The notes beneath the pieces are model-generated. The model was not told where the DNA came from. It searched no databases and saw only the letters and a program-made list of their open reading frames with translations. A DNA stretch of 56,183 bases from Crocinitomicaceae bacterium (GTDB lineage: Bacteria; Bacteroidota; Bacteroidia; Flavobacteriales_D; Crocinitomicaceae): the NCBI GenBank assembly GCA_029252405.1, contig JAQXBM010000039.1:1-56183 (forward strand), in the 5' to 3' direction. The position numbers and the translations under genes are program-made. Shown here piece by piece: positions 28,312-52,624 of the stretch. The stretch's first letter is position 1, and the number at the start of each line of letters is the position of its first letter.

Positions 28312-28330
28312 TATTGTATTTTTGACAATA
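28312..28330. promoter_or_regulatory. Palindromic operator 1 (GH3-regulator operon)
   Basis: TATTGT-ATTTTTG-ACAATA: both half-sites perfect. It overlaps a promoter with TTG at 28314-28316 and TAACTTCG at 28337-28344 (20-bp spacer). It lies 38 bp before the GH3 start. The same TATTGT-N7-ACAATA layout recurs at four other starts in this window. Confidence 0.85.
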
Positions 28331-28367
28331 AATAGATAACTTCGTAGTATTCCATATAAATTATCCT

Positions 28368-30665
28368 ATGAAAATTTACGCGATTCTCGGTTTACTCATC
28401 TTTACAAATCTCTCGGTTTTTGCCCAAGAACGGTTCGAACTGGATGAAAAGGCAGAGAAAGAAATCAATAAAATCATTTCTGAATTAACTTTGGTTGAAA
28501 AGGTTGGACAAACCTGTCAAATTACGCTTGACGCTTTACTCGCGCGAGATGAGTCTGGAGAATTGTTGGAACCGATCCAATTCGATCCTGAGAAATTCAA
28601 CATTGCGCTCTGCGAATACAGAGTTGGTTCTATCTTAAATGTGAGTTCGCACACTTTGACGATGGATGAATGGAATAACATCCTTCCGAAAGTCAACAAT
28701 GCATTCCTCAATAAGAAAATCAACGTTCCGATTATTTACGGAATTGATGCCATCCATGGCGTTAACTATACTGTCGGAGCTACACTCTTCCCTCAAGAAA
28801 TTGGACTTGCTGCCACTTGGAACAACGATCTTTCATATGAATTCGGAGAAATTACCGCTTACGAAATGCGTAAAACAGGACTTCGTTGGAATTTCTCACC
28901 TGTCCTCGATTTAGCGCGCCAACCGCTTTGGTCGCGATATTTTGAAACATTAGGCGAAGATCCTTACCTCGCTGGTGAGTTGGGAGAAAGCATCGTAATG
29001 GGCTACCAAGGATCGAAATACAGTTACCTGGACGATTTTCACGTTGCTTCCTGCTTGAAACACTTCGTGGGATACAGCATGCCGCAATCCGGAAGAGATC
29101 GCACTCCAGCTTGGATTCCACAGAAATTCATGACTGAATTGTATTTACCTCCCTTCAAAAAATCGATTGACGCTGGAGCTATGACATTAATGATCAACAG
29201 TGGAGATGTAAACGGAATCCCAGGTCATGCGAACAAAGCGCTTTTGACGGATTTACTCAAAGATGAATGGGGATTCAAAGGATTCACTGTATCGGATTGG
29301 GAAGATTTCATCATGCTTCAAACAGTGCACAATGTCGCAGCGGATCAACGTGAAGCGATCGCAATGGCAATCAACGCAGGAGTCGATATGAGCATGGTTC
29401 CTTACAATCCGCAATACAAAGAATACTGCGAAACGCTTTTGAAATGTGTTGAAGAAGGTGATGTGAGCATGGAGCGTCTAGAAGATGCTGTGCGCAGAAT
29501 ACTTCGCGTGAAAATGGCAATTGGATTGTATGACAAAAAATCTTACAAGAAAACAGATTACCCTGATTTCGCAAGTGAAGCGTTCAAGAACTCAGCCTTA
29601 CAGTCTGCTCAGGAATCAATCACATTGTTGAAGAATGAGGACGATCTGCTCCCATTGAAAAAATCGACAAAGGTGCTTGTTGCTGGACCAACAGGAAACA
29701 ATTTGACTTTCATCAACGGTGCTTGGACACATACTTGGCAAGGAGTTGATGAATCGTACAATACAGAAAATTGCGAAACGATTTATTCCGCGATCGCCAA
29801 GAAAGTTGGTGCCGAAAATTGTCAATACGCTCAAGGGGCAAACCTCGTTTTGAAAGGTGGCTGGGAAACCTCGACCTTGGTAGACTCAAGTGATTTCAAA
29901 TCGAAAGCTGCAAACAGCGATGTAATCGTTCTCTGCGTTGGAGAGTTACCATCGACCGAAAAGCCGGGTGACATTCGTTCGCTTGATTTGCTCGATGCAC
30001 AAATGGATTTAGCGAAAATGGCTTACAGAACTGGTAAACCTGTTGTTCTTGTTCTTGTAGAGGCTCGCCCTCGTGTTATACATGATATTGTTGGTGATGC
30101 TAACGCAGTTTTCCAAACGTATTTACCTGGAGATTACGGAGGAACTGCTTTGGCAGATTTGATGTTTGGTGATGTCAACCCAAGCGGAAAACTACCTTAC
30201 TCCTATCCAAAATATCCAGGAGTTGTTGAATTCTATGATCGTCCAAAAAGTGTAGATCGTTCTGGAAAGTCAAATGAATTTGATGCTTTTGAACCGGAGT
30301 GGGAATTTGGTTTTGGATTGAGCTACACAGATTTCGAATACTCGAATTTATCAATCGATAAATCAAAAATGAGCAGAACGGATTCCATTCAAGTTACCGT
30401 AGATGTCAAAAATGTTGGAGATCGTGAAGGTAAGGAGGTAGTTCAACTGTATATTTCCGATTTAAAAGCGTCAATTGTTCCTGCTGGAAAACGCTTGAGA
30501 GGTTATAGTAAAATCGACCTAAAGCCAAGTGAGACAGAGACTGTAGCGTTTACGATACACACTGATGACCTCCAATTTTCCGATGCGCAAGGGAACTGGA
30601 TACTGGAAAATGGTGAGTTCCAAGTAGAAATAAGCGGTGAAAACGTTAATTTTGAATTAAACTAA
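28368..30665 (+). CDS. Glycoside hydrolase family 3 beta-glucosidase
   Basis: A 765-residue exported enzyme (signal peptide 1-20, ending VFAQ) that removes terminal glucose from beta-glucan oligomers. The N-terminal GH3 barrel carries PIIYGIDAIHGVNY and KGFTVSDWED, with Asp310 the predicted nucleophile. The (alpha/beta)6 sandwich follows (about 410-620, with LCVGELPSTEKPGD). A C-terminal fibronectin III-like domain (about 660-760) holds GFGLSYTDFEY. The operator 38 bp upstream and the regulator gene 7 bp downstream tie it to the beta-glucan regulon. Confidence 0.93.
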   Translation: MKIYAILGLLIFTNLSVFAQERFELDEKAEKEINKIISELTLVEKVGQTCQITLDALLARDESGELLEPIQFDPEKFNIALCEYRVGSILNVSSHTLTMDEWNNILPKVNNAFLNKKINVPIIYGIDAIHGVNYTVGATLFPQEIGLAATWNNDLSYEFGEITAYEMRKTGLRWNFSPVLDLARQPLWSRYFETLGEDPYLAGELGESIVMGYQGSKYSYLDDFHVASCLKHFVGYSMPQSGRDRTPAWIPQKFMTELYLPPFKKSIDAGAMTLMINSGDVNGIPGHANKALLTDLLKDEWGFKGFTVSDWEDFIMLQTVHNVAADQREAIAMAINAGVDMSMVPYNPQYKEYCETLLKCVEEGDVSMERLEDAVRRILRVKMAIGLYDKKSYKKTDYPDFASEAFKNSALQSAQESITLLKNEDDLLPLKKSTKVLVAGPTGNNLTFINGAWTHTWQGVDESYNTENCETIYSAIAKKVGAENCQYAQGANLVLKGGWETSTLVDSSDFKSKAANSDVIVLCVGELPSTEKPGDIRSLDLLDAQMDLAKMAYRTGKPVVLVLVEARPRVIHDIVGDANAVFQTYLPGDYGGTALADLMFGDVNPSGKLPYSYPKYPGVVEFYDRPKSVDRSGKSNEFDAFEPEWEFGFGLSYTDFEYSNLSIDKSKMSRTDSIQVTVDVKNVGDREGKEVVQLYISDLKASIVPAGKRLRGYSKIDLKPSETETVAFTIHTDDLQFSDAQGNWILENGEFQVEISGENVNFELN

Positions 30666-30672
30666 GAGGGTA

Positions 30673-31368
30673 ATGTATAAAATTGATTTCAATAACTTTT
30701 TTTCCTACTCGTTCTCTATCGATTGCGTCATTTTTGGATTCAAAGATGGACAGGTCAATGTTCTAATGATCAAACGATCGATGGAACCTTTCCTTAATCA
30801 TTGGGCGATACCTGGTGATTTGGTGTACCCTGATGAGGATTTGCAAGTTGCAGCTACTAGAATCTTAACGGAGCTCACAAACCTGAGTAACCTCGATTTA
30901 CATCAAGCGCAAACTTTTGGAAATCCAAGTCGTCACCCTCAAGGACGTGTAATTACAACAGCGTATTTCGCCCTAATTCGAATTACTGATTTCGAAATTG
31001 AAGCATCATCCTTCGCTGAAGAAGTAAAATGGGTGCCAATTCACGAAGTTCCAGAATTGGCTTTCGATCACAACTTGATTTTAAACTCGACTTATGAGTT
31101 GCTGAAGCAAAAGCTTTCATACGAACCAATCTGCTTCGATTTACTGCCTGAAAAATTCACGCTCAACCAAATGCAGCAGCTATTTGAATATGTGAATGAA
31201 GCCGAAATGGATAAAGCAAACTTCAGAAAGAAGATTCGCCCTATTCCATTAATTGCATTGGGTGAGAAACAAAAAAACGTGAAGCATCGCCCTGCAAAAC
31301 TGTTCTCTTTTGATTCTGAAAAATACTCGGAGATCGCTGAAGAAGACGGTTACAGGTTCAAAATATAA
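30673..31368 (+). CDS. Nudix-domain transcriptional regulator (NrtR/AraR-like)
   Basis: A 231-residue cytosolic protein. An N-terminal Nudix-like domain (about 10-140) is followed by a winged helix (about 150-220) with LPEKFTLNQMQQLFEYVNEAEMDKANFRKKI, the layout of NrtR-type regulators such as the arabinose regulator AraR of Bacteroides. The Nudix box is degenerate: GDLVYPDEDLQVAATRILTE has G-x-x-x-x-x-D in place of E, and RILTEL where REUxEE should be. Hydrolysis is therefore unlikely and ligand sensing more probable. I infer that it binds the TATTGT-N7-ACAATA palindromes. The ligand could be glucose or an Entner-Doudoroff intermediate. Confidence 0.85.
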   Translation: MYKIDFNNFFSYSFSIDCVIFGFKDGQVNVLMIKRSMEPFLNHWAIPGDLVYPDEDLQVAATRILTELTNLSNLDLHQAQTFGNPSRHPQGRVITTAYFALIRITDFEIEASSFAEEVKWVPIHEVPELAFDHNLILNSTYELLKQKLSYEPICFDLLPEKFTLNQMQQLFEYVNEAEMDKANFRKKIRPIPLIALGEKQKNVKHRPAKLFSFDSEKYSEIAEEDGYRFKI

Positions 31369-31382: not shown

Positions 31383-31401
31383 TATTGTATATTTTACAAT
31401 A
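31383..31401. promoter_or_regulatory. Palindromic operator 2 (T9SS repeat protein-GH16 operon)
   Basis: TATTGT-ATATTTT-ACAATA: both half-sites perfect. The -33 TTG (31385-31387) is inside the left half-site and TAACTTGC (31408-31415, imperfect TAnnTTTG) follows after 20 bp, the same spacing as at operator 1. It lies 42 bp before the start at 31444. Confidence 0.85.
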
Positions 31402-31443: not shown

Positions 31444-32442
31444 ATGAAAAAATTAGTTACGCAAAAAGTTTGGAAGAGCCTCGCGATTCTCTCGATGACG
31501 TTTTTCTCTTTCACTTCAATCGCTCAAGATTTAAGTATCACTGTAGATGTTTGTGACAGCGCCTCCGAAGTTCGAATGACCGGACCTTTTTGGGGATGGG
31601 ATCCAACTTCAGGACCTTTTGCGACAGATAATGGAAACGGAACATGGACATTTACGCTTTCACCAGCACCTACTACGAACATGGAATACTTAGTCATCGT
31701 TGATGGCATTCAAGAAAACTTGGTTGAAGATATGCTTAACGGTGGATCATGTGCACCTGTAACGGATTATTTCAGCTATGCGAACCGTATTTGGAACGTG
31801 GGAGATGGAGATGTTACTGGAATTAGCTACGACCGTTGCGTTTCATGTGCCATTGATGATTTGGTGATTACTACGGAAATCTGTGACACAACAATCACGG
31901 TAAATCAATTGAGCTTGACAGGTCCAATTTGGAGCTGGGATCCGAATCTAGGACCAGACGCTGTTGACAACGGAAATGGAACTTGGTCATTCACCTTCTC
32001 TCCTGCTCCAACAGATTCTCTTGAATACTTGCTTGTTTTGGACGGAACCTTTGAAAACCTTATTTCTGATATGGTAAATGGCGGCACATGTGCACCAAAT
32101 ACAGATTATTCTACATACGCTAATCGATTGTGGACAAATGGAGCTGGAAACGTGTTTAATACATTTGACCAGTGCTTCCTCTGTGCAGAAGCAAGCATCG
32201 ACGAGACAGCATTCGAAACGCTTTCTGTCTTCCCTGTCCCAGCTTCTGATGTAATTTACGTCAAAGACGAAACGACGATAGGAAACATTGTTATTTACTC
32301 TGTCGATGGCAAAAAAGTTATTGAACGCGAAGTAAACGATTCGAACGCATCAATCTCCATTCATGACTTGAATCCTGGAGTATACTACTTGACGGTATAC
32401 AGAGACGGTGCGTCTTCTGTGCATCAAATCGTTAAGCAATAA
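31444..32442 (+). CDS. T9SS-sorted protein with two tandem ~110-residue repeats
   Basis: A 332-residue protein with a signal peptide (ending SIAQ). The two repeats (about 30-135 and 140-250) share TGPFWGWDP / TGPIWSWDP, TDNGNGTWTF / VDNGNGTWSF, SPAPTT / SPAPTD, LVxDGxxENL and NGGxCAP. They look like small beta-sandwich domains, possibly carbohydrate-binding. A T9SS type A domain occupies about 255-332 (SVFPVPASDVIYV). It is 24 bp upstream of the GH16 gene and under operator 2. The role is inferred as a cell-surface or secreted beta-glucan binder; the sequence does not prove binding. Confidence 0.75.
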   Translation: MKKLVTQKVWKSLAILSMTFFSFTSIAQDLSITVDVCDSASEVRMTGPFWGWDPTSGPFATDNGNGTWTFTLSPAPTTNMEYLVIVDGIQENLVEDMLNGGSCAPVTDYFSYANRIWNVGDGDVTGISYDRCVSCAIDDLVITTEICDTTITVNQLSLTGPIWSWDPNLGPDAVDNGNGTWSFTFSPAPTDSLEYLLVLDGTFENLISDMVNGGTCAPNTDYSTYANRLWTNGAGNVFNTFDQCFLCAEASIDETAFETLSVFPVPASDVIYVKDETTIGNIVIYSVDGKKVIEREVNDSNASISIHDLNPGVYYLTVYRDGASSVHQIVKQ

Positions 32443-32466: not shown

Positions 32467-33474
32467 ATGACTAAATTCCTTTTTCTTGCATTATTTGGAT
32501 TGACGACATTCGCGAGTAACGCGCAATGGACATTGATCTGGTCTGATGAATTTGGTGGAGACGCCTTAGATCAAACTAAATGGGTTCCTGAGACTGGCGG
32601 TTGGGGCTGGGGAAACAACGAACTCCAATATTACACAGACGGTGACAATCTAACTGTTGCTGGTGGAGCCTTGATCATCGAAGCGCGACAAGAACAATTT
32701 GGAGGTAATTCGCACACTTCTGGAAAAATCATTACGAAGGATATTTTTGAAATTGCTTACGGAAAGATTGAAGCGCGTATCAAAGTGCCACTTGGACAAG
32801 GAATTTGGCCGGCATTTTGGATGTTGGGAGCGAATATTGATCAAGTGAGTTGGCCGTATTGTGGCGAAATTGACGTAATGGAACATGTCAACAATGAAAT
32901 GGCAATTCACGGAACGGCTCACTGGCACAATGGCGGCGGTCACACCTACGATGGAAATTCGGCAGTTGTTAACCCAACAAACTATCAGGTCTACTCTATC
33001 GAGTGGAATGATCAAGAAATCAGATGGTTCTTGAATGGAAATCAATACCACTATTTGTCGATAGCGAACAACACACAGAGCACTGGAGAATTTCAATTGC
33101 CTTTCTACTTAATTCTCAATTTAGCAGTTGGTGGAAATTGGCCAGGCTATCCTGATGCATCGACCGTATTCCCTACTCAATTAGAAATCGATTACGTTAG
33201 GGCTTACAAACTGGATGCAGAAGCAAGTGTTATAGAAAACGAAATTGCAGAAGTATCGGTATTTCCAAATCCTGCGGTGGATCAACTAACGGTTGAATCT
33301 TCATTGGAAGGAAACGCAACAATCACAGGCATGGATGGATCAATCATTTCTGAAGAAGTAATTCTTTCTGGATCAAATAATTTATCAATCGCAGATATGG
33401 CAGAAGGCATGTATTTGCTAACGATTCAACATGAGAATGGATCGACATCAACAACAAGATTTGTAAAAGAATAA
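32467..33474 (+). CDS. Glycoside hydrolase family 16 endo-beta-1,3-glucanase (laminarinase-like), T9SS-sorted
   Basis: A 335-residue secreted enzyme. After a signal peptide (ending SNAQ) comes a GH16 beta-jelly roll with WSDEFGG, the GKIEARIKVPLGQGIWPAFW segment and the catalytic EIDVMEH motif (Glu134 nucleophile, Asp136, Glu139 acid/base). The extra Met in ExDxxE matches bacterial laminarinase subgroups. A T9SS type A domain (about 255-335, VFPNPAVDQLTVES) directs it to the surface or medium. It would cut laminarin or a similar beta-1,3-glucan to oligomers for the GH3 enzyme. Confidence 0.93.
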   Translation: MTKFLFLALFGLTTFASNAQWTLIWSDEFGGDALDQTKWVPETGGWGWGNNELQYYTDGDNLTVAGGALIIEARQEQFGGNSHTSGKIITKDIFEIAYGKIEARIKVPLGQGIWPAFWMLGANIDQVSWPYCGEIDVMEHVNNEMAIHGTAHWHNGGGHTYDGNSAVVNPTNYQVYSIEWNDQEIRWFLNGNQYHYLSIANNTQSTGEFQLPFYLILNLAVGGNWPGYPDASTVFPTQLEIDYVRAYKLDAEASVIENEIAEVSVFPNPAVDQLTVESSLEGNATITGMDGSIISEEVILSGSNNLSIADMAEGMYLLTIQHENGSTSTTRFVKE

Positions 33475-34316: not shown

Positions 34317-34398
34317 ACCATCTGAAATTTATCCATACAAACAGTTCATGTAAATCATTCCTTTAAGTTGATTCTGAAATAATCAGTATTTTAACTTC

Positions 34399-35058: not shown

Positions 35059-35061
35059 ATC

Positions 35062-36312: not shown

Positions 36313-36354
36313 TTACATTAAAACAGCTACATTTATCGGAAAAAACCACCAGAA

Positions 36355-36801: not shown

Positions 36802-36808
36802 TCCTTCT

Positions 36809-38631: not shown

Positions 38632-38669
38632 TACACAGTTAATTGTTGACTATGGGTAAGCAATAATTG

Positions 38670-41993: not shown

Positions 41994-43682
41994 TTAAAAT
42001 TTCATTACATAAAACACCATCACTTGATTCAAAGCGTATGGGTTAATTTCATTGTCGTTATTACTGTTTCCTTCGTAGAAGGCCGATAAGTAAACGTCTT
42101 CTGAGAAATTAAATCTCAATCCTGCCGCGTAATACCCTTCCTTCGCATTGATTCTGTATTCTGAAAAATTGATAATCTCATCGTTTCCATCGCGAACGGC
42201 TAACAATTCATTTCCTCTAGATATAAAATACGAATAGTTTCCGATCAAAAACAAATCTTCCACTAACTCAAACTCTCCACCAATTTGAAGTGCCTGCGTC
42301 GTAAGCGAAATCCCTCCAAATGGAGACGGCGCTCTGTTCGTTGCTTGGTATGACCAACCTACATTCACAGTTTGTCGTTTTTTCCAAGCCAACATCTCCG
42401 AAACATTCACATCTAACTTCGTTTTGGCAAAATCAAATTTCTTTAGTTCAGTCGTACCTTGACCTCGCACTTCACTCAGACGGTAGTAAGTCGCATCCAG
42501 TTTGATGTACTTCTTTTTGTCCTGATAATTCACTGTCGAGTAAATCCCTTTACGATTGAACGTTGCTACTCCAAACGGTAAAACATTGTTCAACGCTGGG
42601 TTGTAAGCAGCAATTCCTGTTGAAATCGACTGATTGTAGTAGTTTGGATCGTTGTAGATATCGTATAAAGACGTTGTTCTTTGAACCTGATCATTCGTGT
42701 AACGATCAAACATCGAGTTCACATTGTTGTAATTGATTCGCTTCGATTGTGCTCCAAAACTTCTAAAGTCTGCGCCATTATCCATGTACCCGACACTTGC
42801 CTTAAAACCATGATCTTTCAACTCAAAACTTACAGAAGCATTGATGAAGTAATCAGACAATGCTGACGTGTCCTCAACAAGTCCACTCGTTGAAATACCC
42901 GTTTCACCGTTAAATTTCAATCTCCATTTGTCTTTATCTAATGTTGATTGAGCCGTCAATGTGCTTACATTGTTTCTATATGCTGGAGTTCCAACTGCTG
43001 TTTCTTTCAAATCGAAAATGCTCACATGATTCAAGCCAACAGTAAGGTACTTACTTTGCTTGATGATCATGTTTCCTCCTCCGTACAAACGCTCAAGGAT
43101 ATTTGCAAAATTCGTTGGATTCAAACGTGTGATAAACCCGTTAAATTTGATTTCATTCACCACTTTCGGGAATGCCAATCCAAAATCGATAGCAGCTCCT
43201 TGCTGTCTCCACGTGTTATTATTCGTGTAGAATGTCTCATACCTGTTCACGTCCTGTTTGATTCCAAGCGCTCCTGAAGAATTCATCTGAAGATCGAGAT
43301 CATTGTTGTAGAATGTATACGGTGTAAGTTTGTAATCGATGTTTCCAATTTGGTAGCGAAGGATCTTTCCTGCAACACCACGAACGTACAATTGTCGAAC
43401 GTCAAATGTTACTCCTCCACCCCAGAATCCTCCGAATTCGTTGTTGATACGGATCATTCCTAGAATTTCCGTTTGTGCGTTTGGATTGATCTTAAATCCT
43501 AAATCGATCAGGGCATAGCCTCCTGTCGCCTTTCTTCGTGAAACCGTATCGGCTGCACCTGGATCCATCGACATGTGAGAAATCAACGAACGTGCTCCAC
43601 CGACAAATTGCACTTTCTTCTTGGATTGAGAAAAAGCAACTGTGCTTAGGCAACAAATAAATAGTATTAAAGCTGATTTCAT
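41994..43682 (-). CDS. Outer-membrane beta-barrel protein (barrel 2 of the glucan operon)
   Basis: A 562-residue protein with a signal peptide (ending VAFSQ). From about residue 40 to the end it shows the alternating pattern and frequent Tyr/Asn/Gly of a large outer-membrane barrel, with a terminal Phe (FYVMKF) as required for BAM-dependent assembly. There is no plug or carboxypeptidase-like domain, so it is not SusC-like. Its start overlaps the stop of barrel 1 by one base. Inferred role: a porin-like channel for glucan oligomers. Confidence 0.72.
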   Translation of the reverse strand: MKSALILFICCLSTVAFSQSKKKVQFVGGARSLISHMSMDPGAADTVSRRKATGGYALIDLGFKINPNAQTEILGMIRINNEFGGFWGGGVTFDVRQLYVRGVAGKILRYQIGNIDYKLTPYTFYNNDLDLQMNSSGALGIKQDVNRYETFYTNNNTWRQQGAAIDFGLAFPKVVNEIKFNGFITRLNPTNFANILERLYGGGNMIIKQSKYLTVGLNHVSIFDLKETAVGTPAYRNNVSTLTAQSTLDKDKWRLKFNGETGISTSGLVEDTSALSDYFINASVSFELKDHGFKASVGYMDNGADFRSFGAQSKRINYNNVNSMFDRYTNDQVQRTTSLYDIYNDPNYYNQSISTGIAAYNPALNNVLPFGVATFNRKGIYSTVNYQDKKKYIKLDATYYRLSEVRGQGTTELKKFDFAKTKLDVNVSEMLAWKKRQTVNVGWSYQATNRAPSPFGGISLTTQALQIGGEFELVEDLFLIGNYSYFISRGNELLAVRDGNDEIINFSEYRINAKEGYYAAGLRFNFSEDVYLSAFYEGNSNNDNEINPYALNQVMVFYVMKF

Positions 43683-45532
43683 TAGAAGTAAATTTTTAAT
43701 TCAACTGAAGTTTCAGTACCCGAATAACGATCGAGAGAGAAGTTAATGTCTTGGTAGTTCATCCATCGTTGGCGAACGTATAACCCAGTATTTTTCGATA
43801 ATTGAATATCTAAACCAATTGCGTAGCTGTATCCAATTTGATTTTTAGCCAGACCGCTTTGCGTGTCTAACTGAGTTCGATCATTCGCGATGATTCGGTC
43901 AACTCCAAAGTAATTCGAGAGTACAACTTTATCCAAAATGTTGTAGTAAAATTCTATTTGATTGCTGTAGCTCTGGAGATATGCTTTTTTCGAATATTTA
44001 GGCAGAGCCGAGAAATCATCTTGAACCGAGTAGAAACCTCCGAGGTAGAAAATGTATAAATCCCTGTTGAAAATCTTGTAGTTCGATTTGTAACTAATTT
44101 CGATAGAATTGAATCCTTTAGCCGCAGTTGTTGAATCAGTAATGATCAAGGTTTCGTATACTCCACGGTAGATTTTATTCAAATTGGCATAAGGTCCAAC
44201 ATCCGCTGGGAACGCCCAACGCCACATTCTTGAAAGCGCTAAATTATTGGCTGTATGACCATAAGTGATTCGATCCGAAAGTCCTGTAATTTCTTTTGCC
44301 GCACTATATCCAAGTGTGATTTTGTGCTTTTCGAATGGCATGTCCAAGTTGATAATTCCACCTCTACGGTTATTGGTCATTTGTCCGATTGAAACAAGAG
44401 AGCTCGCAAATGGAATAATTGGAGCTTGTCCTCCTTCAGCAACTTCGATACCAGCAAGTGCCTCGTTGTATTCTGAGATGGACGTGTTCCAGAAGATTCC
44501 GTTGTTGTTAATCACGTTGGGACTAATCTGAAAGTATCGGAATTCAATTGGGAAATAGGTCAAGTTCTTTGAAAGCTCCACTTTGACATCAATGGCTTCA
44601 CCCCATTGTGAATTGTACGTTGGACTGAAATACGTTCCCGCTCCAACTTCACCTTTCACTTTCACGTCTTTGAATCTCCATTCGAATTCACTCGTGACCA
44701 GGTTGTAGCCAATTGTTTCCATCGCCAAACTATCGCTGTATCGAGCACTAGTGATAGCGTTAACGCTGACAAATCCTTTATTAAAATCTTTTTTGACCTT
44801 CCCTGCCGTTAAGGTATTGGGAGTTGGAAGTGAACCTCCATTAAACTGAGATTTCCCGTGCATGAAGGCGAAAGAAAACTGTTTTGGAAGTCGCATTCCA
44901 TCAATGATAAATCCTTGAAATGCCTGCTGCCCCCAACGCGTATCTTGATTCAACAATCCCTCCTGGTAGTATTGTGAGTAACGATCCATTTCGTTCTTCG
45001 TGTTCGGATCCCATGGATTGCGTTCGAACAAACTGATTCTGTTATATCCTGTATTCGTTGCAAACGTGAATGGACTCAACGTATACCAGTGAATTCCTCC
45101 CATTCGAACTGAGAAGGTTCCATATTTCGTAGAATGTTTTCCGTTTAGATTCACCCCGAGGTTCAAACCTTTGGCGTAATCAGCATCAGAACCTGTTAAT
45201 GGTGTCCAAAGAAAGAAATCCGTGCTGAAGGAAGTGTTTTTAGAAGGTCGAGCGCTCAAGTTTATCGAAAGCTGCGGAATGTTACTATCATCTCCAATGA
45301 ACAAACGATTGGTGATGTCTCCCATCTCTGCGTATTGCTCGTCCATGGAAGTATAGGTTCCTAAAAAGCGGTAGTATCCGGAAACGGACAGTTTGTTCAG
45401 GCCTTGTTCCATCAATTTCGGGAACATTCCTGATTTCTCGAGCTTGGTCGTATCCTCCATTTGCGCATTGGCCGACAAGCAACCAAAGCTCATAAGGACG
45501 AGCAGTAAGCTATGTAGTTTATTGATCTTCAA
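43682..45532 (-). CDS. Outer-membrane beta-barrel protein (barrel 1 of the glucan operon)
   Basis: A 616-residue protein with a signal peptide (ending ANAQ). The barrel region begins near LSVSGYYRFLGTYTSM and runs to a C-terminal ELKIYF. Many Trp, Tyr and Asn residues lie in the predicted loops. It has no TonB plug and no lipobox. The gene overlaps the upstream glycosidase gene by 14 bp and is followed by barrel 2. Two consecutive large barrels in one glucan operon, with no SusCD, is unusual. Confidence 0.72.
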   Translation of the reverse strand: MKINKLHSLLLVLMSFGCLSANAQMEDTTKLEKSGMFPKLMEQGLNKLSVSGYYRFLGTYTSMDEQYAEMGDITNRLFIGDDSNIPQLSINLSARPSKNTSFSTDFFLWTPLTGSDADYAKGLNLGVNLNGKHSTKYGTFSVRMGGIHWYTLSPFTFATNTGYNRISLFERNPWDPNTKNEMDRYSQYYQEGLLNQDTRWGQQAFQGFIIDGMRLPKQFSFAFMHGKSQFNGGSLPTPNTLTAGKVKKDFNKGFVSVNAITSARYSDSLAMETIGYNLVTSEFEWRFKDVKVKGEVGAGTYFSPTYNSQWGEAIDVKVELSKNLTYFPIEFRYFQISPNVINNNGIFWNTSISEYNEALAGIEVAEGGQAPIIPFASSLVSIGQMTNNRRGGIINLDMPFEKHKITLGYSAAKEITGLSDRITYGHTANNLALSRMWRWAFPADVGPYANLNKIYRGVYETLIITDSTTAAKGFNSIEISYKSNYKIFNRDLYIFYLGGFYSVQDDFSALPKYSKKAYLQSYSNQIEFYYNILDKVVLSNYFGVDRIIANDRTQLDTQSGLAKNQIGYSYAIGLDIQLSKNTGLYVRQRWMNYQDINFSLDRYSGTETSVELKIYF

Positions 45533-46898
45533 AGGACTTAATATCTTGTTGAATAAATCTTACTCGCGTATCCTCTTCCATGTTCTTAGGATCTACGTAA
45601 AAAGGAATGTTGGCATACGAAACACGCACTCCGTCAGTCACAGTAACGAACAGGCGATACTTGCCTTCGCGAATAGGTGCTTTCATTTCCACTTTTGGTG
45701 AACTTTTCTTTGATAGTCGTCCCAAAATGGAAACAGGCTTGTTTTCTGCGTCTCCACCGGATTTTAAATCGGTACTTTCTGGATACAATTCCCAGGAATA
45801 TTTGAGTTTATCCGAATTCATGTCGGTCGCAAGCACTTCTATTGAAACTTTTTCATTTCCTCCAAGAATCGTGTTTTTTTCAAGCTGATTCCCATTGATT
45901 TTAAGGTCTTCAATTTTCGGAGCGCGATTTTCAGGGAATTCACCTTTCCAATTGTACTCAAGTACGTCGATAGCTTCTGTTGGCTCACCGTCTTCCGTGA
46001 ACACTCCGTACCAAGTTGACGTGTACTCTTGTTTCTGTCCCCACAAGAAGGCAAATGAACCAAGACACTGCTCGCGTTTGTCCCAAATGTATTTTTCGTA
46101 GCGATCTTTGTACACAGCAGCCTTTTCAGAGCTCGTTTGTTCGATGGATGCTCCCCAACGTGTTTTTGGTGATTCCCAGTGACCGTTTGGCCCCCACTCT
46201 GTAATCATATAAGGTCGTTCGAAATTTGCTTTCTCTAACACTTTGTGAACATTGCCAATATCGCCGTATGTATTGATTCCGTAGATATCGATTGCCGTCA
46301 ATTCATTCTTAACGAAGGCTACTTTCACATCGTTTGTTCCTGCAGTTACCGTTGAAGTCGGGTGATTTGGATCTTCCTCTTGGACCATTTCAGCGATATC
46401 ATTCACTGCTTTCCAAACTTTCGTGTTGTTGTATTGGAGTTCGTACTCATTTCCGATTCCCCATAATAAAAGCGCAGGATGGTCCTTGTATCTTCGCACC
46501 GCTAAACGGAACGATTCAAGTTGTTTTCTGATTTTATCCTCATCGTTGTAATCGAAACCGTGACGTTCATGTTGAACCCACAATCCCATCATTACCTTGA
46601 GGCCTTTCTTTTGAGCCAAATCCAACACTTCTTGAGCATTTTCAACTCCCCATGTTCGAATGGTGTTTCCTCCGCATTCTAATAATACGTCTAAATGCTT
46701 CTCTCCACCTGCTCCCTTAATATAGAAAGGCTCACCTTTTACGAGCAAGGTCCATTTCCCGTCTTCTTTTGAAACGGTTACTGGTTCAACTTGAGAAAAC
46801 GATGTAAATGAAAAGAAAACAATCATCGAGAATAGCGCTCGCTTAAGCAAAGCATTATTTCTTTCAGATAGTGTGTGATGTAGTTTTGGCGTTTTCAT
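45519..46898 (-). CDS. Clan GH-A glycoside hydrolase (GH2_C/GH5/GH158-like) with Ig-like C-terminal domain
   Basis: A 459-residue enzyme with an N-terminal signal-like stretch (ending SFTSFSQ). A TIM-barrel follows: YIKGAGGEKHLDVLLECGGN, then WGIGNEYE with Glu151 as acid/base and MITEWGP with Glu234 as nucleophile, as in clan GH-A. The C-terminal ~110 residues form an Ig-like domain (APKIEDLKINGNQLEKN...). A barrel plus Ig domain would fit a beta-1,3-glucanase of the GH158 kind; a family search is needed to choose. The first in-frame ATG may be too early, as the operator ends 11 bp before it and TTG at residue 16 gives a normal signal peptide. Confidence 0.82.
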   Translation of the reverse strand: MKTPKLHHTLSERNNALLKRALFSMIVFFSFTSFSQVEPVTVSKEDGKWTLLVKGEPFYIKGAGGEKHLDVLLECGGNTIRTWGVENAQEVLDLAQKKGLKVMMGLWVQHERHGFDYNDEDKIRKQLESFRLAVRRYKDHPALLLWGIGNEYELQYNNTKVWKAVNDIAEMVQEEDPNHPTSTVTAGTNDVKVAFVKNELTAIDIYGINTYGDIGNVHKVLEKANFERPYMITEWGPNGHWESPKTRWGASIEQTSSEKAAVYKDRYEKYIWDKREQCLGSFAFLWGQKQEYTSTWYGVFTEDGEPTEAIDVLEYNWKGEFPENRAPKIEDLKINGNQLEKNTILGGNEKVSIEVLATDMNSDKLKYSWELYPESTDLKSGGDAENKPVSILGRLSKKSSPKVEMKAPIREGKYRLFVTVTDGVRVSYANIPFYVDPKNMEEDTRVRFIQQDIKSFEDQ

Positions 46899-46908: not shown

Positions 46909-46927
46909 TATGGTAACTTGTACAATA
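46909..46927. promoter_or_regulatory. Palindromic operator 3 (glycosidase-barrel operon)
   Basis: TATGGT-AACTTGT-ACAATA read on the plus strand; 11 of 12 half-site positions match. It lies 11 bp before the start codon at 46898 and about 40 bp after the end of the sugar-kinase gene. No clear -10 element fits between it and the gene, so it may act on read-through from the kinase promoter. Confidence 0.7.
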
Positions 46928-46966: not shown

Positions 46967-47830
46967 CTAAATTGGAGTGCTCTGCGCGTTCATTTTTTCT
47001 AAATGGTATGAAATCAATCCATCAATTGGCTTGCGAATCACTTGTCCCATCTGCGCTCTATGGAAATCACATGCATCCGAAAGCTGATTCTTAAATAGGA
47101 ATGCTATCGAACCAATGAAGTGCACTTTGTAGTTTTTGTAATCTTGATAACAGCAAACGTGTGCCTCAATGAACTCTTTAAATCCATTGTAGATCATTTC
47201 TTTGATAAAATCATCATCTGCATACTGCACAATGAACTTCATGAATGAAGCCAAGTATACGTTTGCATCTTTCTCCATGTAAACACGACGAACAATTTCA
47301 TCTTTCGTCAAGCCCATTTCATATTTCAAAGCATCGTTGATTCTCTTTGGCAATTTATGATACAAGTAGTTTGCAACCAACTTTTTCCCAAAATAAGCAC
47401 CGCTTCCTTCATCCCCTAGAATATAACCAAGCGCTGGAACTTCTTCAAATACGTTTTCTCCATCAAAAAAGCATGAATTCGATCCTGTACCTATAATACA
47501 AGAAATGGACGGCTCGTTTTCGTATGTCGCAAATGCGCAGGCCTTCAAATCGTGATCAACCACAATTTCGGCTTTTCTAAAAACACGCGTCAAGCCTCCA
47601 TGAATAATTTGATTCAATTCAGGTGAGGAACATCCAGCTCCGTAAAAATAGAGATGTGTTACATCATCTCGATACGCAAACAAATCTTCATTTTTCTCTA
47701 TCGCCTCATATACTGTATCCTCGCTGTGGAAGTATGGATTTAACCCCATTGTATTGAACGCTTCATTCGATGAACCTTTCAACAATACCCAGTCACTTTT
47801 TGTGGAACCACTATCTACTATTAAATGCAT
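46967..47830 (-). CDS. BadF-type sugar kinase (N-acetylglucosamine kinase/glucokinase-like)
   Basis: A 287-residue ASKHA-fold kinase. The phosphate 1 motif is IVDSGSTKSDWVLLKG (residues 3-18). VVDHDLKACAFA and ISCIIGTGSNSCFFDG are the phosphate 2 and adenosine regions, and LGYILGDEGSGAYFGKK the sugar-side loop, as in the BadF/BadG/NagK group. Its place between the glycosidase operon and zwf argues that it phosphorylates glucose to feed Zwf. An N-acetylglucosamine kinase role, which is the usual family label, is less likely here but cannot be excluded. Confidence 0.85.
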   Translation of the reverse strand: MHLIVDSGSTKSDWVLLKGSSNEAFNTMGLNPYFHSEDTVYEAIEKNEDLFAYRDDVTHLYFYGAGCSSPELNQIIHGGLTRVFRKAEIVVDHDLKACAFATYENEPSISCIIGTGSNSCFFDGENVFEEVPALGYILGDEGSGAYFGKKLVANYLYHKLPKRINDALKYEMGLTKDEIVRRVYMEKDANVYLASFMKFIVQYADDDFIKEMIYNGFKEFIEAHVCCYQDYKNYKVHFIGSIAFLFKNQLSDACDFHRAQMGQVIRKPIDGLISYHLEKMNAQSTPI

Positions 47831-47852: not shown

Positions 47853-47871
47853 TATTGTATTTTGTACCTTT
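47853..47871. promoter_or_regulatory. Palindromic operator 4 (sugar kinase)
   Basis: TATTGT-ATTTTGT-ACCTTT: the left half-site is perfect, the right one poor (9 of 12 positions in all). It lies 22 bp before the kinase start. The minus strand has TATATTTA (47881 to 47874), close to TAnnTTTG, just upstream of it, with a CAA (TTG on the minus strand) 21 bp further away. Confidence 0.55.
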
Positions 47872-48075: not shown

Positions 48076-48107
48076 TATTGTATTTTAGACTATAAGAACT
48101 ATATTTG
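48076..48107 (+). promoter_or_regulatory. Operator 5 and promoter of zwf-pgl-edd-eda
   Basis: TATTGT-ATTTTAG-ACTATA (48076-48094, 11 of 12 half-site positions) contains TTG at 48078-48080. After exactly 19 bp comes TATATTTG at 48100-48107, a perfect Bacteroidota -10. The operator thus covers the -33 element. A separate TATATTTG at 47965-47972 has no TTG in register. The rest of the 291-bp gap between the kinase and zwf shows nothing else. Confidence 0.85.
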
Positions 48108-48121: not shown

Positions 48122-49609
48122 ATGAGTATTAAACGACCAAAAATTATAAAACCATTTAACGCGATCATCTTCGGAGGTGATGGCGACTTGGCATTTAGAA
48201 AGATATATCCTGCTCTATTCCACCGATTCGTGGACAAGCAACTGGAGATGGATCACGATATCTTCGCTGTTACTCGATCAGCAAATAGTGACGATAAGTT
48301 TTTCGAAAATCTCGAAAAGTTCATCGTTCAATCAGTTGACTACAACCTCGACATGAAACTTGTGGCTGTTTTCATCAAGAAGATTAAACTGCTTTACATT
48401 CCTGATCACACCAAGGAATCATACGCAGAGCTTAAGAAACACCTTAATAAGAATGCAGAGCGACAATGCGTGTATTATTTATCTACTCCTTCTTCTGCTT
48501 TTGGAGAGATTTCTGATTGTTTGAAACGCTGCGGATTATTGAACAAACGAAGTAAAGTCGTTCTAGAAAAGCCCTTGGGCAATAGCTTGGCAACTTCTCG
48601 TGCCATCCATGAGAAAATTGCGAAGTCTTTTGACGAAGACCAAATTTATCGCATCGATCACTACCTCGGTAAAGAGACTGTTCAGAATTTAATGGTCCTT
48701 CGCTTCGCAAACCGACTATTCGAATCTTCATGGGATTCTGAGAACATTGATAACGTACAAATCACGGTAGCTGAAAACCTCGGTGTAGAAAAACGTGGGG
48801 CATATTACGATCAAAGTGGCGCCTTGTTGGACATGGTTCAAAATCACTTGTTGCAATTACTTTGTTTGATCGCAATGGAGCCACCTTCAAAATTGGAGGC
48901 GAATCACGTTCGAAACGAGAAATTAAAAGTCTTACACGCCATTCGCTTGTTCGATGAGAACTCGGTGAAAACAGGAACTACTCGCGGACAGTACACACGC
49001 GGAAACATGGAAAGCGGCAAAGTGAATTCTTACCTCGAGGATATCGGTAAATACGAATCGGAGACAGAGACTTTTGTTGCCATCAAGGCATACATTGATA
49101 ACTGGCGATGGAAAGACACACCTTTCTATCTGCGCACAGGAAAAAGAATGATCAAGCGTTATTCTGAAATCATTATCAACTTCAAATCGGTAAAGCACAA
49201 CACTTTCGACTCGAACGGTGATATCCCAGGAAACAAACTCATCATCCGTCTCCAACCAGAAGAGCGTATTGAACTTGTTCAAATGACAAAGCTTCCTGGT
49301 CCTGGTGGATATCGCTACAAGCCAATTTCATTGAAACTGGACTACGTGGATTCATTCACGGAGCGTTTCCCTGAAGCCTACGAGCGATTAATGATAGATA
49401 TCCTTCGCGGAGAACAAACACTTTTCATGCGTCAAGATGAACTCGATGCGGCTTGGGTTTGGATCGAATCAATTGTCAATGGCTGGAAGAAATCAAAACA
49501 AGCCAAAATTCTTTACGAAGCAGGATCTTGGGGACCCGGTGACGGTGTCTTAAATGAAAATCATGCATGGTCAAAATCAATTAAAATCAATGAGGACGAA
49601 GCACTATAA
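48122..49609 (+). CDS. zwf: Glucose-6-phosphate 1-dehydrogenase
   Basis: A 495-residue cytosolic enzyme that oxidises glucose 6-phosphate to 6-phosphogluconolactone with NAD(P)+. The cofactor loop is GGDGDLAFRKIYPALF (residues about 18-33; the usual form is GASGDLAxRK). The active-site signature RIDHYLGKETVQN lies at about 178-190, and a conserved K in the substrate site (VLEKPLG) is at about 149. Length is typical. The start lies about 15 bp after the -10 element. The gene heads the Entner-Doudoroff operon. Confidence 0.96.
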   Translation: MSIKRPKIIKPFNAIIFGGDGDLAFRKIYPALFHRFVDKQLEMDHDIFAVTRSANSDDKFFENLEKFIVQSVDYNLDMKLVAVFIKKIKLLYIPDHTKESYAELKKHLNKNAERQCVYYLSTPSSAFGEISDCLKRCGLLNKRSKVVLEKPLGNSLATSRAIHEKIAKSFDEDQIYRIDHYLGKETVQNLMVLRFANRLFESSWDSENIDNVQITVAENLGVEKRGAYYDQSGALLDMVQNHLLQLLCLIAMEPPSKLEANHVRNEKLKVLHAIRLFDENSVKTGTTRGQYTRGNMESGKVNSYLEDIGKYESETETFVAIKAYIDNWRWKDTPFYLRTGKRMIKRYSEIIINFKSVKHNTFDSNGDIPGNKLIIRLQPEERIELVQMTKLPGPGGYRYKPISLKLDYVDSFTERFPEAYERLMIDILRGEQTLFMRQDELDAAWVWIESIVNGWKKSKQAKILYEAGSWGPGDGVLNENHAWSKSIKINEDEAL

Positions 49610-50252
49610 AACTACTGAACAACTAGAGGAAGCGCTATTTCGCGAGATAACAACCAAGATTAACCTTTCCATTGAAGAATATGGAGATGCAAGAATCCTT
49701 CTTTCAGGTGGAAATACACCAAAGGCTCTCTATGGGCGAATCTCAGCGGCTGAAATTGATTGGTCCAAAGTCAAAATCGGATTAGTCGACGATAGAAATG
49801 TTGACCTTTCTAGTGAATTCAGCAATGAACAAATGATGAGGGATACCTTTTTAAAAGATGATCAGCAGGGACCAGAAATCATTGGAATGGTCGGTGAAGG
49901 TTCGAATAAAAAAACCATTGAAAAACGTTACTCGACCTTTTTTGACCGCATTGACTATACACTCCTGGGCATGGGAGAAGATGGACATACTGCTTCCCTA
50001 TTCCCTGGCGACACTCCTTCAGAAGCGAGTTTGCGGAATACGGAAAGAGAAATCATTTTCACCACAGCTCCAAGTTTTCCAAACGACAGAATCTCTTGCA
50101 GCCGCGGACTGATTATTTCAAGTCAGAGCATCGGATTAATGATAATTGGAGAAAATAAACTCACAGTTCTTGAGGAATCAGAAGAACAAATGCTTCCAAT
50201 TGGTTATTTTACCAATGCCTGCCAACAATTAACAACATATTATTGCAAATAA
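49590..50252 (+). CDS. pgl: 6-Phosphogluconolactonase
   Basis: A 220-residue enzyme of the DevB/SOL type that hydrolyses 6-phosphogluconolactone to 6-phosphogluconate. LLSGGNTPKALY (substrate-phosphate site), VGLVDDRNV-like IGLVDDRNVDLSSEFSN, and GMGEDGHTASLFPGD (with the catalytic His) are the family blocks. The open frame extends back to ATG 49554, inside zwf, but the ATG at 49590 gives the usual N-terminus (MRTKHYKTTEQLEEA) with a 20-bp overlap; the choice is uncertain. Confidence 0.93.
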   Translation: MRTKHYKTTEQLEEALFREITTKINLSIEEYGDARILLSGGNTPKALYGRISAAEIDWSKVKIGLVDDRNVDLSSEFSNEQMMRDTFLKDDQQGPEIIGMVGEGSNKKTIEKRYSTFFDRIDYTLLGMGEDGHTASLFPGDTPSEASLRNTEREIIFTTAPSFPNDRISCSRGLIISSQSIGLMIIGENKLTVLEESEEQMLPIGYFTNACQQLTTYYCK

Positions 50253-52057
50253 TGAGTGTACATTCAGAAATTCAAAGAATTACAGATCGAATTATTGCGA
50301 GAAGTTCAGAAACACGTTCGGCGTACGTCGATCAGATGAAACAGCAATTCGAGCAAGAATCAACACGATCAGGATTACATTGCGGAAACTTAGCACATGC
50401 ATTCGCAGGTTGCGGAGCGCACGATAAAGCCGCCATTTCCGACGGGAAAGTTCCGAATCTAGGGATAATTACTGCTTACAATGACATGCTTTCGGCCCAC
50501 AAGCCATTTGAGACTTACCCTGAAATGATCCGCGAATTCGCTCAGAAACACAACGCTGTTGCCCAAGTTGCTGGTGCTGTGCCTGCCATGTGCGATGGAG
50601 TGACTCAAGGTCAAGTTGGGATGGAACTTTCTCTTTACAGCCGTGATGTGATAGCGCTTTCGACAACCGTGGGACTTTCTCACAACATGTTCGAAGGAGT
50701 CATCAACTTAGGAATCTGCGATAAAATTGTTCCTGGTTTACTCATTGGAAACCTGAAATTTGGAAATCTTCATGCGCTTTTCATGCCTGGAGGCCCAATG
50801 GAATCAGGCATAAGTAATGAGGAGAAAGCAAGAATTCGACGAGAATACGCGGAAGGAAAAATTGATCGTGCCACTTTATTAAAAGGGGAATCCGATTCCT
50901 ACCACTCTCCTGGTACGTGTACTTTTTATGGTACTGCCAACAGCAATCAAATGTTGATGGAAATCATGGGGCTTCAGCTTCCAGGTTCAAGTTTTGTAAA
51001 TCCAGGTACTGAATTGAGAACCTTACTCAACGAGGAAGCGGTGAAAGTTTTGGTTGAGATGATTCAAGAAAACAACTTCGATCGTTCGATTTCTCAAATC
51101 GTGAGTGAAAAGACGGTAGTAAACGCAATCATTGGATTACTCGCCACAGGGGGATCAACAAATCATACGATCCACTTGATCGCAATAGCTAAAGCTGCAG
51201 GAATTATTATTGATTGGACGGATTTCTCTGAATTATCGAAGGTGATTCCATTGCTGACGCGTGTCTATCCGAATGGAGCAGCAGACGTAAATCACTTCCA
51301 CGCTTCTGGCGGAATGGGATTTGTGATTCGCACGTTATTGGAAGGTGGATTACTTCACGAAGATGTTAATACGATCCTTGGGAAAGGATTGAATCTATAC
51401 AAAGCGGAGCCAAAAATCAAAGATCACAAACTGATCTGGGTGGACGGTGCAAAAGAATCACTTAATGATTCAATTTTGCGATCTGTCGACAAACCTTTCA
51501 GTCCTGAAGGAGGAATTACAATGCTCGAAGGAAACATTGGTCGTTCAGTACTGAAGAAATCAGCAGTTGACCCTGATAATTTCGTCACGGAAGCGCCAGC
51601 TATCGTATTTAATGAACAAGAAGATCTCATTAAAGCTTTCAAAAACGACGAACTCAATAAGGACTTTGTTGCAGTTTTACCATTTCAAGGTCCTCAGCAA
51701 AACGGAATGCCAGAACTACACCAGCTGACACCAACGCTCACTATTCTGCAAAAGCGCGGACACAAAGTAGCATTGGTAACAGACGGGCGAATGTCTGGCG
51801 CATCGGGAAAAGTTCCATCTGCGATTCATGTCACGCCAGAAGCACGATGTGGAGGAGCCATCGGGAAAATTCGCACAGGAGACCTCATTTTGGTGGACGC
51901 CAAAAACGGAATCCTCGAATGTAAAGAGCAATCACTGAACGATCGAACGATCGAAATCAAAGATAATTCTGGATCGATTGGAACTGGAAGAGAATTATTT
52001 AGTTCATTGCGACAAGTAATTACTTCTAGTGAAGAAGGTGCAAGTTTTATTCTATAA
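50252..52057 (+). CDS. edd: 6-Phosphogluconate dehydratase
   Basis: A 601-residue enzyme that dehydrates 6-phosphogluconate to 2-keto-3-deoxy-6-phosphogluconate. The iron-sulfur/dehydratase signatures are present: AHAFAGCGAHDK, PAMCDGVTQGQ, NMFEG, FYGTANSNQM, GGSTNHTIHL and TDGRMSGASGK. The ATG at 50252 shares its A with the pgl stop TAA (TAATG), a classical coupling overlap; TTG at 50243 is less likely. It is the first committed Entner-Doudoroff step. Confidence 0.97.
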   Translation: MSVHSEIQRITDRIIARSSETRSAYVDQMKQQFEQESTRSGLHCGNLAHAFAGCGAHDKAAISDGKVPNLGIITAYNDMLSAHKPFETYPEMIREFAQKHNAVAQVAGAVPAMCDGVTQGQVGMELSLYSRDVIALSTTVGLSHNMFEGVINLGICDKIVPGLLIGNLKFGNLHALFMPGGPMESGISNEEKARIRREYAEGKIDRATLLKGESDSYHSPGTCTFYGTANSNQMLMEIMGLQLPGSSFVNPGTELRTLLNEEAVKVLVEMIQENNFDRSISQIVSEKTVVNAIIGLLATGGSTNHTIHLIAIAKAAGIIIDWTDFSELSKVIPLLTRVYPNGAADVNHFHASGGMGFVIRTLLEGGLLHEDVNTILGKGLNLYKAEPKIKDHKLIWVDGAKESLNDSILRSVDKPFSPEGGITMLEGNIGRSVLKKSAVDPDNFVTEAPAIVFNEQEDLIKAFKNDELNKDFVAVLPFQGPQQNGMPELHQLTPTLTILQKRGHKVALVTDGRMSGASGKVPSAIHVTPEARCGGAIGKIRTGDLILVDAKNGILECKEQSLNDRTIEIKDNSGSIGTGRELFSSLRQVITSSEEGASFIL

Positions 52058-52060
52058 GTT

Positions 52061-52624
52061 ATGAAGCAAAACAACATTGAAAACGTCTTAAAGAATCACC
52101 CGCTGATTCCTGTAGTTACGATTCATTCTGAAGACGAAATTGATCCGATTATTAGCACGCTGAAATCGCGAAACGTAAATTGCATCGAAGTGACTTTGCG
52201 CACGGACTTTGCGTTTGAAGCACTTCAAATCATTAAGGATCGTTATTCTGATAGCATAACGCTCGGAGTCGGAACGGTTATTTCCACAGACCAAATCGAT
52301 AAGCTCGCTGCCATTGGGGTTGATTTTATCGTCAGTCCTGGATTGACCTCTAAACTCTACCATCACTTCATGGCCTCTTCGATTCCTTTTATTCCTGGAG
52401 TTGCGAGCCCGAGTGAAATCATCCAAGCCATTGAATTGGGTTGCGACATGTTGAAATTTTTCCCCGCAAACTTGTTCGGAGGAATCAACGCGCTCAAGAC
52501 GTATGGCAATGTATTTCCTCAGGTTAAATTCTGCCCGACTGGCGGTGTGAGTGAATCGACTTTTGAAGATTATTTGGCACTGAACAACGTGATTTCCGTT
52601 GGAGGTTCTTGGATGATGAAGTAG
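52061..52624 (+). CDS. eda: KDPG aldolase (2-keto-3-deoxy-6-phosphogluconate aldolase)
   Basis: A 187-residue class I aldolase that splits KDPG to pyruvate and glyceraldehyde 3-phosphate. The Schiff-base lysine is Lys132 in MLKFFPANLFGG. The catalytic Glu is in CIEVTLRT, and GVGTVIS and SPGLTSKL complete the barrel pattern. It starts 3 bp after edd. It is a little shorter than the typical ~205-215 residues, missing mainly the C-terminal helix. Confidence 0.95.
   Translation: MKQNNIENVLKNHPLIPVVTIHSEDEIDPIISTLKSRNVNCIEVTLRTDFAFEALQIIKDRYSDSITLGVGTVISTDQIDKLAAIGVDFIVSPGLTSKLYHHFMASSIPFIPGVASPSEIIQAIELGCDMLKFFPANLFGGINALKTYGNVFPQVKFCPTGGVSESTFEDYLALNNVISVGGSWMMK

What the first reader, a model, noticed from the sequence alone, without database searches (positions are those of the whole stretch)
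28312..52624. A beta-glucan-to-Entner-Doudoroff system without SusC/SusD, under one operator
Within 24 kb lie a GH3, a GH16, a clan GH-A enzyme, binding-protein candidates, two beta-barrels, a sugar kinase, zwf-pgl-edd-eda and a Nudix-type regulator. Each of the five transcription units that carry these genes has the same palindrome. This would be a single regulon that links extracellular glucan cleavage directly to one central carbon pathway. Classical Bacteroidota glycan loci use SusC/SusD and seldom include central metabolism. Seen: gene content and palindromes. Inferred: substrate (laminarin-like glucan) and co-regulation. No glucose transporter of the inner membrane is in the window, so one must be encoded elsewhere.
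Basis: partly seen in the sequence, partly recalled or inferred. Interest (0 to 1): 0.9.

Follow-up and report, generated by a model that had tools for sequence, protein, structure and literature searches.

The report
Beta-glucan locus with plugless double barrel
An aquatic bacterium appears to take up algal-type beta-glucan through two newly recognised outer-membrane barrel proteins instead of the usual SusC/SusD pump, under one genetic switch that also turns on the pathway that burns the released glucose.

Summary
Five transcription units (28312-52624) carry one operator, TATTGTA-N5-TACAATA, 10-42 bp before their start codons. They encode GH3 with a Nudix/AraR-type regulator; a secreted protein with T9SS-tailed GH16; GH158, two barrels, a CBM11-like lipoprotein and a CBM30-like protein; a sugar kinase; and zwf-pgl-edd-eda. 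The operator recurs before most orthologous lead genes in near relatives, including SSF or MFS transporters. The host assembly (4.28 Mb) has no SusD match and no SusC above cut-off.

The new element is the cassette GH158-barrel1-barrel2-lipoprotein-CBM. Barrel2 directly follows barrel1 in 73 of 73 loci with room; GH158 occurs in 25 of 27 barrel genomes and 0 of 72 others. AlphaFold models both barrels as about 22 long strands without a plug domain. Among 17 family members with the orthologous regulator, 8 have the cassette, 7 an orthologous SusC/SusD pair, 2 neither, none both; regulator and GH3 trees interleave the types.

Best reading: an alternative outer-membrane module that takes SusCD's place for beta-1,3-glucan uptake. 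Substrate, uptake and DNA binding are untested. I found no description of the cassette in ten literature searches. The regulator principle has a precedent (AraR of Bacteroides).

The parts
28312..28330 (.). operator, unit 1 (GH3-regulator), 37 bp before ATG
   Evidence: 13 of 14 positions; same site before GH3 in relatives
28368..30665 (+). GH3 beta-glucosidase, signal peptide by eye, no T9SS tail: probably periplasmic
   Evidence: Pfam GH3 N and C domains
30673..31368 (+). Nudix/winged-helix regulator, AraR/NrtR type
   Evidence: NrtR_WHD, NUDIX, AraR_C; phmmer E 1.4e-48 to AraR 5bs6
31383..31401 (.). operator, unit 2 (secreted protein-GH16), 42 bp before ATG
   Evidence: 14 of 14
31444..32442 (+). 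secreted protein with two similar domains and T9SS sorting tail; glycan binding inferred
   Evidence: Por_Secre_tail only
32467..33474 (+). GH16 endo-glucanase with T9SS sorting tail
   Evidence: Glyco_hydro_16 E 2.1e-20, Por_Secre_tail
39720..40988 (-). secreted CBM30-like protein; homologues also show CBM9_1
   Evidence: window protein only E 0.0031, below cut-off; homologues above cut-off
40985..41989 (-). lipoprotein with CBM11-like domain
   Evidence: CBM_11 27.3 bits, cut-off 27; lipobox pattern in 71 of 83 homologues
41994..43682 (-). barrel2, 562 aa, about 22 strands, no plug
   Evidence: AlphaFold mean pLDDT 87.9, pTM 0.84; no solved relative
43682..45532 (-). barrel1, 616 aa, 21-23 long strands, no plug
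   Evidence: AlphaFold mean pLDDT 80.6, pTM 0.79; no credible solved relative
45519..46898 (-). GH158 endo-beta-1,3-glucanase, no T9SS tail: probably periplasmic
   Evidence: E 3.5e-93 to 9oro GH158
46909..46927 (.). operator, unit 3 (GH158-barrel cassette), 10 bp before ATG
   Evidence: 13 of 14
46967..47830 (-). sugar kinase of the BadF/N-acetylhexosamine kinase type; glucose as substrate inferred
   Evidence: BadF below Pfam cut-off; matches to solved GlcNAc and MurNAc kinases
47853..47871 (.). operator, unit 4 (kinase), 22 bp before ATG, weakest
   Evidence: 11 of 14; 6 of 8 relatives score 12 or more before the kinase
48076..48094 (.). operator, unit 5 (zwf operon), 27 bp before ATG
   Evidence: 12 of 14; 8 of 8 relatives score 12 or more
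48122..49609 (+). zwf, glucose-6-phosphate dehydrogenase
   Evidence: G6PD_N and G6PD_C
49554..50252 (+). pgl, 6-phosphogluconolactonase
   Evidence: Glucosamine_iso family; role from operon position
50243..52057 (+). edd, 6-phosphogluconate dehydratase
   Evidence: ILVD_EDD_N and ILV_EDD_C
52061..52624 (+). eda, KDPG aldolase
   Evidence: Aldolase PF01081 E 5.8e-59

Best explanation
A beta-1,3-glucan (laminarin-type) utilisation regulon whose outer-membrane step is done by a two-barrel cassette instead of SusC/SusD. Inferred order: GH16 and a companion protein, secreted by the type IX system, cut and hold glucan at the cell surface; the CBM11-like lipoprotein and the CBM30-like protein bind oligosaccharides; these cross the outer membrane through barrel1 and barrel2, which have no plug and so are probably open or ligand-gated pores not driven by TonB; GH158 and GH3 finish hydrolysis in the periplasm; an SSF or MFS carrier takes glucose in; the kinase makes glucose-6-phosphate; zwf-pgl-edd-eda take it to pyruvate and glyceraldehyde-3-phosphate. 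A Nudix/AraR-type repressor on the shared operator would be released by a sugar or sugar phosphate. Shown by computation: gene content, operator conservation, synteny, absence of SusCD in this assembly, plugless all-beta models, exchange with SusCD among relatives. Inferred: substrate, locations, transport, effector.
For: GH158 identity. Cassette synteny in 80 loci, each step counted where the contig had room: barrel2 directly after barrel1 73 of 73, lipoprotein 66 of 66, CBM protein 62 of 64, GH158 or SSF directly before barrel1 73 of 74. GH158 in 25 of 27 barrel1 genomes and 0 of 72 others, Fisher p 2e-21. Operator score 12 or more of 14 in loci with barrel1 identity 53% or more: before GH158 17 of 20, GH3 9 of 10, MFS 5 of 5, SSF 2 of 3, T9SS protein of the CBMsec type 5 of 7, unlabelled genes 6 of 42; most shuffle rates 0-1.7% (SSF 3.3%). 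No SusD, no SusC above cut-off in the assembly. Exchange: of 17 family members with regulator identity 60% or more, 8 cassette, 7 orthologous SusC (68-92% to that of G021) and SusD (72-91%), 2 neither, 0 both, p 0.0023. Trees of regulator and GH3 pair cassette genome G017 with SusCD genome G012 (100/99; 100/100) and group G018 with G021 and G025 (97/97; 100/100). Four of the seven SusC genes have the operator 35-46 bp before the start. Models: about 22 long strands each, no plug domain.
Against: No experiment. Over the whole set of 99 genomes barrel1 and SusD_3 are not exclusive: 14 of 27 barrel genomes and 23 of 72 others have SusD_3, p 0.10 and in the positive direction; exclusion holds only for the glucan-type pair in the regulator-orthologue group, which I defined after seeing the data (with any SusD_3 counted, 2 of 8 against 7 of 9, p 0.057). 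Three of the seven SusC genes have no operator of 12 or more directly before them. In distant loci the operator is often weak: before GH158 5 of 29, MFS 1 of 10, REG 8 of 22. The host has 25 TonB-plug genes, any of which could import glucan oligosaccharides. No operator-linked glucose carrier was found in this genome. Barrel closure and pore width were not inspected; fold searches never ran. Near-identical records are among the 80 loci, so counts are not independent.
Confidence: 0.62

Rival explanations
1. The barrels do not import glucan: they insert, export or hold the CBM lipoprotein and CBM protein at the surface, as a surface-display complex, while oligosaccharides enter through another TonB-dependent receptor or a general porin.
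For: Barrels and CBM proteins are strictly neighbours; there are 25 TonB-plug genes in the genome; the surface lipoprotein would need a route out.
Against: SusCD-type relatives carry surface lipoprotein GH16 without these barrels. None of the 25 plug places listed is within 5 kb of a site with up to 2 mismatches listed (compared by eye).
Confidence: 0.2
2. Another beta-glucan is the substrate: mixed-linkage beta-1,3/1,4-glucan or bacterial/fungal beta-glucan, with laminarin incidental.
For: CBM11 and CBM30 are recalled to bind mixed-linkage glucan and cellulose (no call); [quoted passage not shown]
Against: GH158 is described as an endo-beta(1,3)-glucanase family and BuGH3 as a specific beta(1,3)-glucosidase (passages).
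Confidence: 0.25
3. Ordinary SusCD polysaccharide utilisation locus whose SusCD pair was missed by the assembly or by the profiles.
For: Draft genome of 102 contigs; profile searches can miss divergent proteins.
Against: PF14322, PF07980 and TIGR04056 all negative or far below cut-off with a positive control genome; SusC-like genes occur in only 3 of 80 cassette loci, two of them at 25-27% identity over part of the protein, and SusD in 1.
Confidence: 0.05
4. The operator belongs to more than one Nudix regulator; the regulon is run by a paralogue or shared.
For: Two further homologues in this genome, 42% and 44% identical, and a site with 2 mismatches lies just before the one on C18.
Against: The 100%-matched site flanks this regulator, and orthologues of this regulator lie beside the regulon genes in relatives.
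Confidence: 0.2

Closest known systems
Beta(1,3)-glucan utilisation locus of Bacteroides uniformis (1,3GUL; PMC7157763, passages seen)
   Same: GH16, GH158 and GH3 together with surface glycan-binding proteins
   Different: There SusC/SusD and a hybrid two-component regulator; here two plugless barrels, a Nudix regulator and central metabolism in the regulon
AraR regulon of Bacteroides thetaiotaomicron (PMC4666351, PMC3878776, passages seen)
   Same: Nudix/winged-helix regulator with a palindromic operator joining sugar catabolism to glycan hydrolases
   Different: There L-arabinose, a 21-bp motif and SusC/SusD pairs in the regulon; here beta-glucan enzymes, Entner-Doudoroff genes and no SusCD
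Marine Bacteroidetes laminarin PUL variants (PMC6794258, passages seen)
   Same: GH16/GH3-based laminarin loci
   Different: Defined there through SusC/D trees; the cassette would not be called
'CAZyme clusters' without susCD (PMC10108472, passages seen)
   Same: Authors recognise CAZyme gene groups without susCD or with MFS transporters
   Different: The passages seen describe no barrel pair

Membership tests
SusC/SusD-type polysaccharide utilisation locus | SusC/SusD pair | tested here: not met
   over the whole assembly
SusC/SusD-type polysaccharide utilisation locus | co-located glycan hydrolases and binding proteins under a local regulator | tested here: met
GH158 | full-length similarity to solved members | tested here: met
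   residues 34-435 aligned to 9oro, E 3.5e-93
[quoted passage not shown]
   needs enzyme assay
AraR/NrtR Nudix regulators | Nudix-like domain plus winged-helix domain | tested here: met
AraR/NrtR Nudix regulators | binding of a palindromic operator, released by a sugar effector | tested here: inconclusive
   operator conserved with the regulator; binding and effector untested
TonB-dependent receptors (for barrel1 and barrel2) | N-terminal plug domain and about 22-stranded barrel | tested here: not met
   no plug in the models; no Plug or TonB match in 61 and 63 homologues, only weak barrel models OMP_b-brl, DUF2490, DUF3575, OmpA_membrane
Known porin folds with solved structure | fold match | not tested
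   Fold search busy; profile search of sequences found nothing credible

The most novel reading that the evidence does not exclude
A TonB-independent glycan import system of Bacteroidota: two unrelated plugless barrels of about 22 strands plus two CBM proteins and GH158 form a mobile outer-membrane module that has repeatedly taken the place of SusC/SusD (or been replaced by it) under the same regulator and the same downstream metabolism.
Probability: 0.42. Interest if true: 0.87.

Novelty: new variant of a known kind. Interest (0 to 1): 0.74.

Why it matters
SusC/SusD is the usual mark by which Bacteroidota glycan loci are found, so genomes that use this cassette would be scored as having no glucan locus; one paper reports a Crocinitomicaceae isolate as lacking PULs (PMC12313589, passages; I did not test that strain). 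Laminarin is a major algal storage glucan, so who can eat it matters for aquatic carbon budgets. It also makes testable whether large plugless barrels can feed a Bacteroidota cell on oligosaccharides without TonB energy.

Tried and rejected
Palindrome as chance: not rejected by count in the window, rejected by position and conservation. SusCD elsewhere in the genome: looked for, not found. Own SSF carrier: best 27% identity. Own MFS carrier: C83, 62% to a regulon MFS of a relative, but in an operon with proline racemase, FAD oxidoreductase and aldehyde dehydrogenase and with only 11 of 14 at its start codon: not assigned. Kinship of the two barrels to each other: hhalign probability 24%, not claimed. 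General exclusion of SusD by barrels in the order: not borne out. A sequence-only strand scan had no control and is superseded by the models. Kinase as a proven glucokinase: not supported, nearest solved named proteins are GlcNAc and MurNAc kinases. Literature: ten searches; no paper in the listings or passages seen describes the cassette; preprints and most subscription papers are not held, so this is weak evidence of absence.
Full report
What is there. The interval holds five transcription units with the same operator and, between them, unrelated genes. Unit 1 is GH3 plus a Nudix/winged-helix regulator (closest solved relative AraR of Bacteroides). Unit 2 is a T9SS-tailed protein plus T9SS-tailed GH16. 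Unit 3 runs leftward: GH158, barrel1, barrel2, a lipoprotein with a CBM11-like domain and a protein whose homologues score as CBM30 and CBM9. Unit 4 is a sugar kinase. Unit 5 is zwf-pgl-edd-eda. Genes at 33627-39122 show no match to the operator.

The operator. Scores of the five sites are 13, 14, 13, 11 and 12 of 14 positions, all 10-42 bp before the start codon. The sum, 63, exceeds all 2000 shuffles of the same stretches (maximum 52) and all 104 other permutations of the half-site. Counting matches in the window at up to 3 mismatches gives no significance (8 of 100 shuffles reach 6), nor does the genome at that level (299 against 319 for the reversed pattern), so weak single sites must not be trusted. 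At up to 1 mismatch the genome has 5 sites against 0. The two outside the window lie 22-23 bp before a T9SS-tailed secreted protein (C92) and across the start of a 1131-residue adhesin with an L-type lectin domain (C28).

Conservation of the operator. In fetched relatives zwf has a site of 12 or more in 8 of 8, GH158 13 or more in 6 of 8, kinase 12 or more in 6 of 8, GH3 13 in 4 of 9. In the 80 loci, split by barrel1 identity at 53%, the near group has 12 or more before GH158 in 17 of 20, GH3 9 of 10, MFS 5 of 5, SSF 2 of 3, unlabelled genes 6 of 42 and zwf 0 of 1; the far group is much weaker (GH158 5 of 29, REG 8 of 22, SSF 4 of 6, MFS 1 of 10). Some records are near-identical, so these are not independent counts.

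The cassette. A genome scan with barrel1 found 164 stretches, 154 of them relatives, of which 80 were kept; all 80 titles read MAG or uncultured, mostly Flavobacteriales, with some titled Bacteroidales, Chitinophagaceae/Chitinophagales and Sphingobacteriales (MAG titles can be wrong; one reads Euryarchaeota). Where the contig had room, barrel2 follows barrel1 in 73 of 73, the lipoprotein in 66 of 66, the CBM protein in 62 of 64, and GH158 or an SSF symporter precedes barrel1 in 73 of 74; GH158 is in 70 of the 80 loci, GH3 in 43, the regulator family in 33, MFS in 17, SSF in 15, a SusC-like gene in 3, SusD in 1. Over 99 genomes of genus, family and order, barrel1 is in 27 and GH158 (E up to 1e-20) in 25, all of them among the 27.

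The barrels. Pfam finds nothing in either window protein; of 61 and 63 homologues a handful match only generic barrel models. Profile searches of solved sequences give nothing credible. AlphaFold gives mean pLDDT 80.6 (barrel1) and 87.9 (barrel2). Barrel2 has 22 strands of 10 or more residues, starting directly after the signal peptide; barrel1 has 21 strands of 9 or more (23 of 8 or more), after a disordered stretch at 22-41. So both look like large barrels of about the TonB-receptor size but without plug. I did not inspect closure or pore. Every one of 99 barrel1 homologues read ends in phenylalanine, and 74 of 88 barrel2 homologues (the sets overlap).

Exchange with SusCD. In family f1 17 genomes, the window's included, have the regulator at 60% identity or more. 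Eight have barrel1. Seven others have a SusC/SusD pair orthologous to that of G021 (SusC 68-92%, SusD 72-91%) with a GH16 beside it. G028 and G022 have neither. G048 and G050 (barrel genomes) have one other SusD each, only 24-28% identical. In four of seven SusC genes the operator lies 35-46 bp before the start; in G021 and G025 SusC follows the regulator gene, and in G012 no site of 12 or more was found on the stretch. Trees of regulator and GH3 mix the two types with good support. By eye, GH16 has a T9SS-like tail in the cassette genomes and a lipoprotein start in the SusCD genomes, with G026 showing both. I defined this group and the orthology criterion after seeing the data; with any SusD_3 counted, p is 0.057, and order-wide the two are not exclusive.

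Transporter. In relatives an SSF symporter or an MFS carrier is in the locus and often under the operator. In this genome the best SSF is 27% identical and the MFS homologue (62%) sits in an unrelated operon. This step stays open.

Who it is. The window's relative G013 (same genus by the tool) has a 7175-base contig matching exactly the length and match of record CALFOS010000006.1, titled uncultured Fluviicola sp.; so the host is probably a Fluviicola-type member of Crocinitomicaceae. This is inference.

Known or new. Enzymes and substrate logic match the Bacteroides uniformis beta(1,3)-glucan locus (passages). A Nudix regulator that joins hydrolases and catabolism is known (passages). What I find no trace of in ten searches is the barrel cassette and its exchange with SusCD. 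The surface-export reading of the lipoprotein (CRKDE-like start) rests on a recalled Capnocytophaga signal; a loose pattern for it matched 26 of 83 homologues.

Noticed in passing
G000:C92:6673-6691 (L011 1501-1519): Operator with 1 mismatch just before a T9SS-tailed secreted protein without other Pfam match: probable sixth regulon member.
   Followed up: partly
G000:C28:4303-4321 (L009 1501-1519; L019 908-4303): Perfect operator across the start of a 1131-aa adhesin with L-type lectin, PKD and CHU_C domains; L-type lectin genes also lie near the regulator in some relatives (L095, L207, L209, L212).
   Followed up: partly
G000:C18:43424-44056 and G000:C13:45786-46484: Two more Nudix-type regulator homologues (42% and 44%); a site with 2 mismatches lies before the C18 one. 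Cross-talk possible.
   Followed up: no
L101:17280-18119 and similar in many far loci: A protein of about 280 aa without Pfam match follows GH3 in many distant cassette loci; absent from the window.
   Followed up: no
window 36809-37504: Secreted protein with a Gln_deamidase_2 domain (E 4.4e-19), beside small genes of unknown function.
   Followed up: no
window 52733-55882: Hybrid histidine kinase and response regulator directly after eda; no operator seen in the matches.
   Followed up: no
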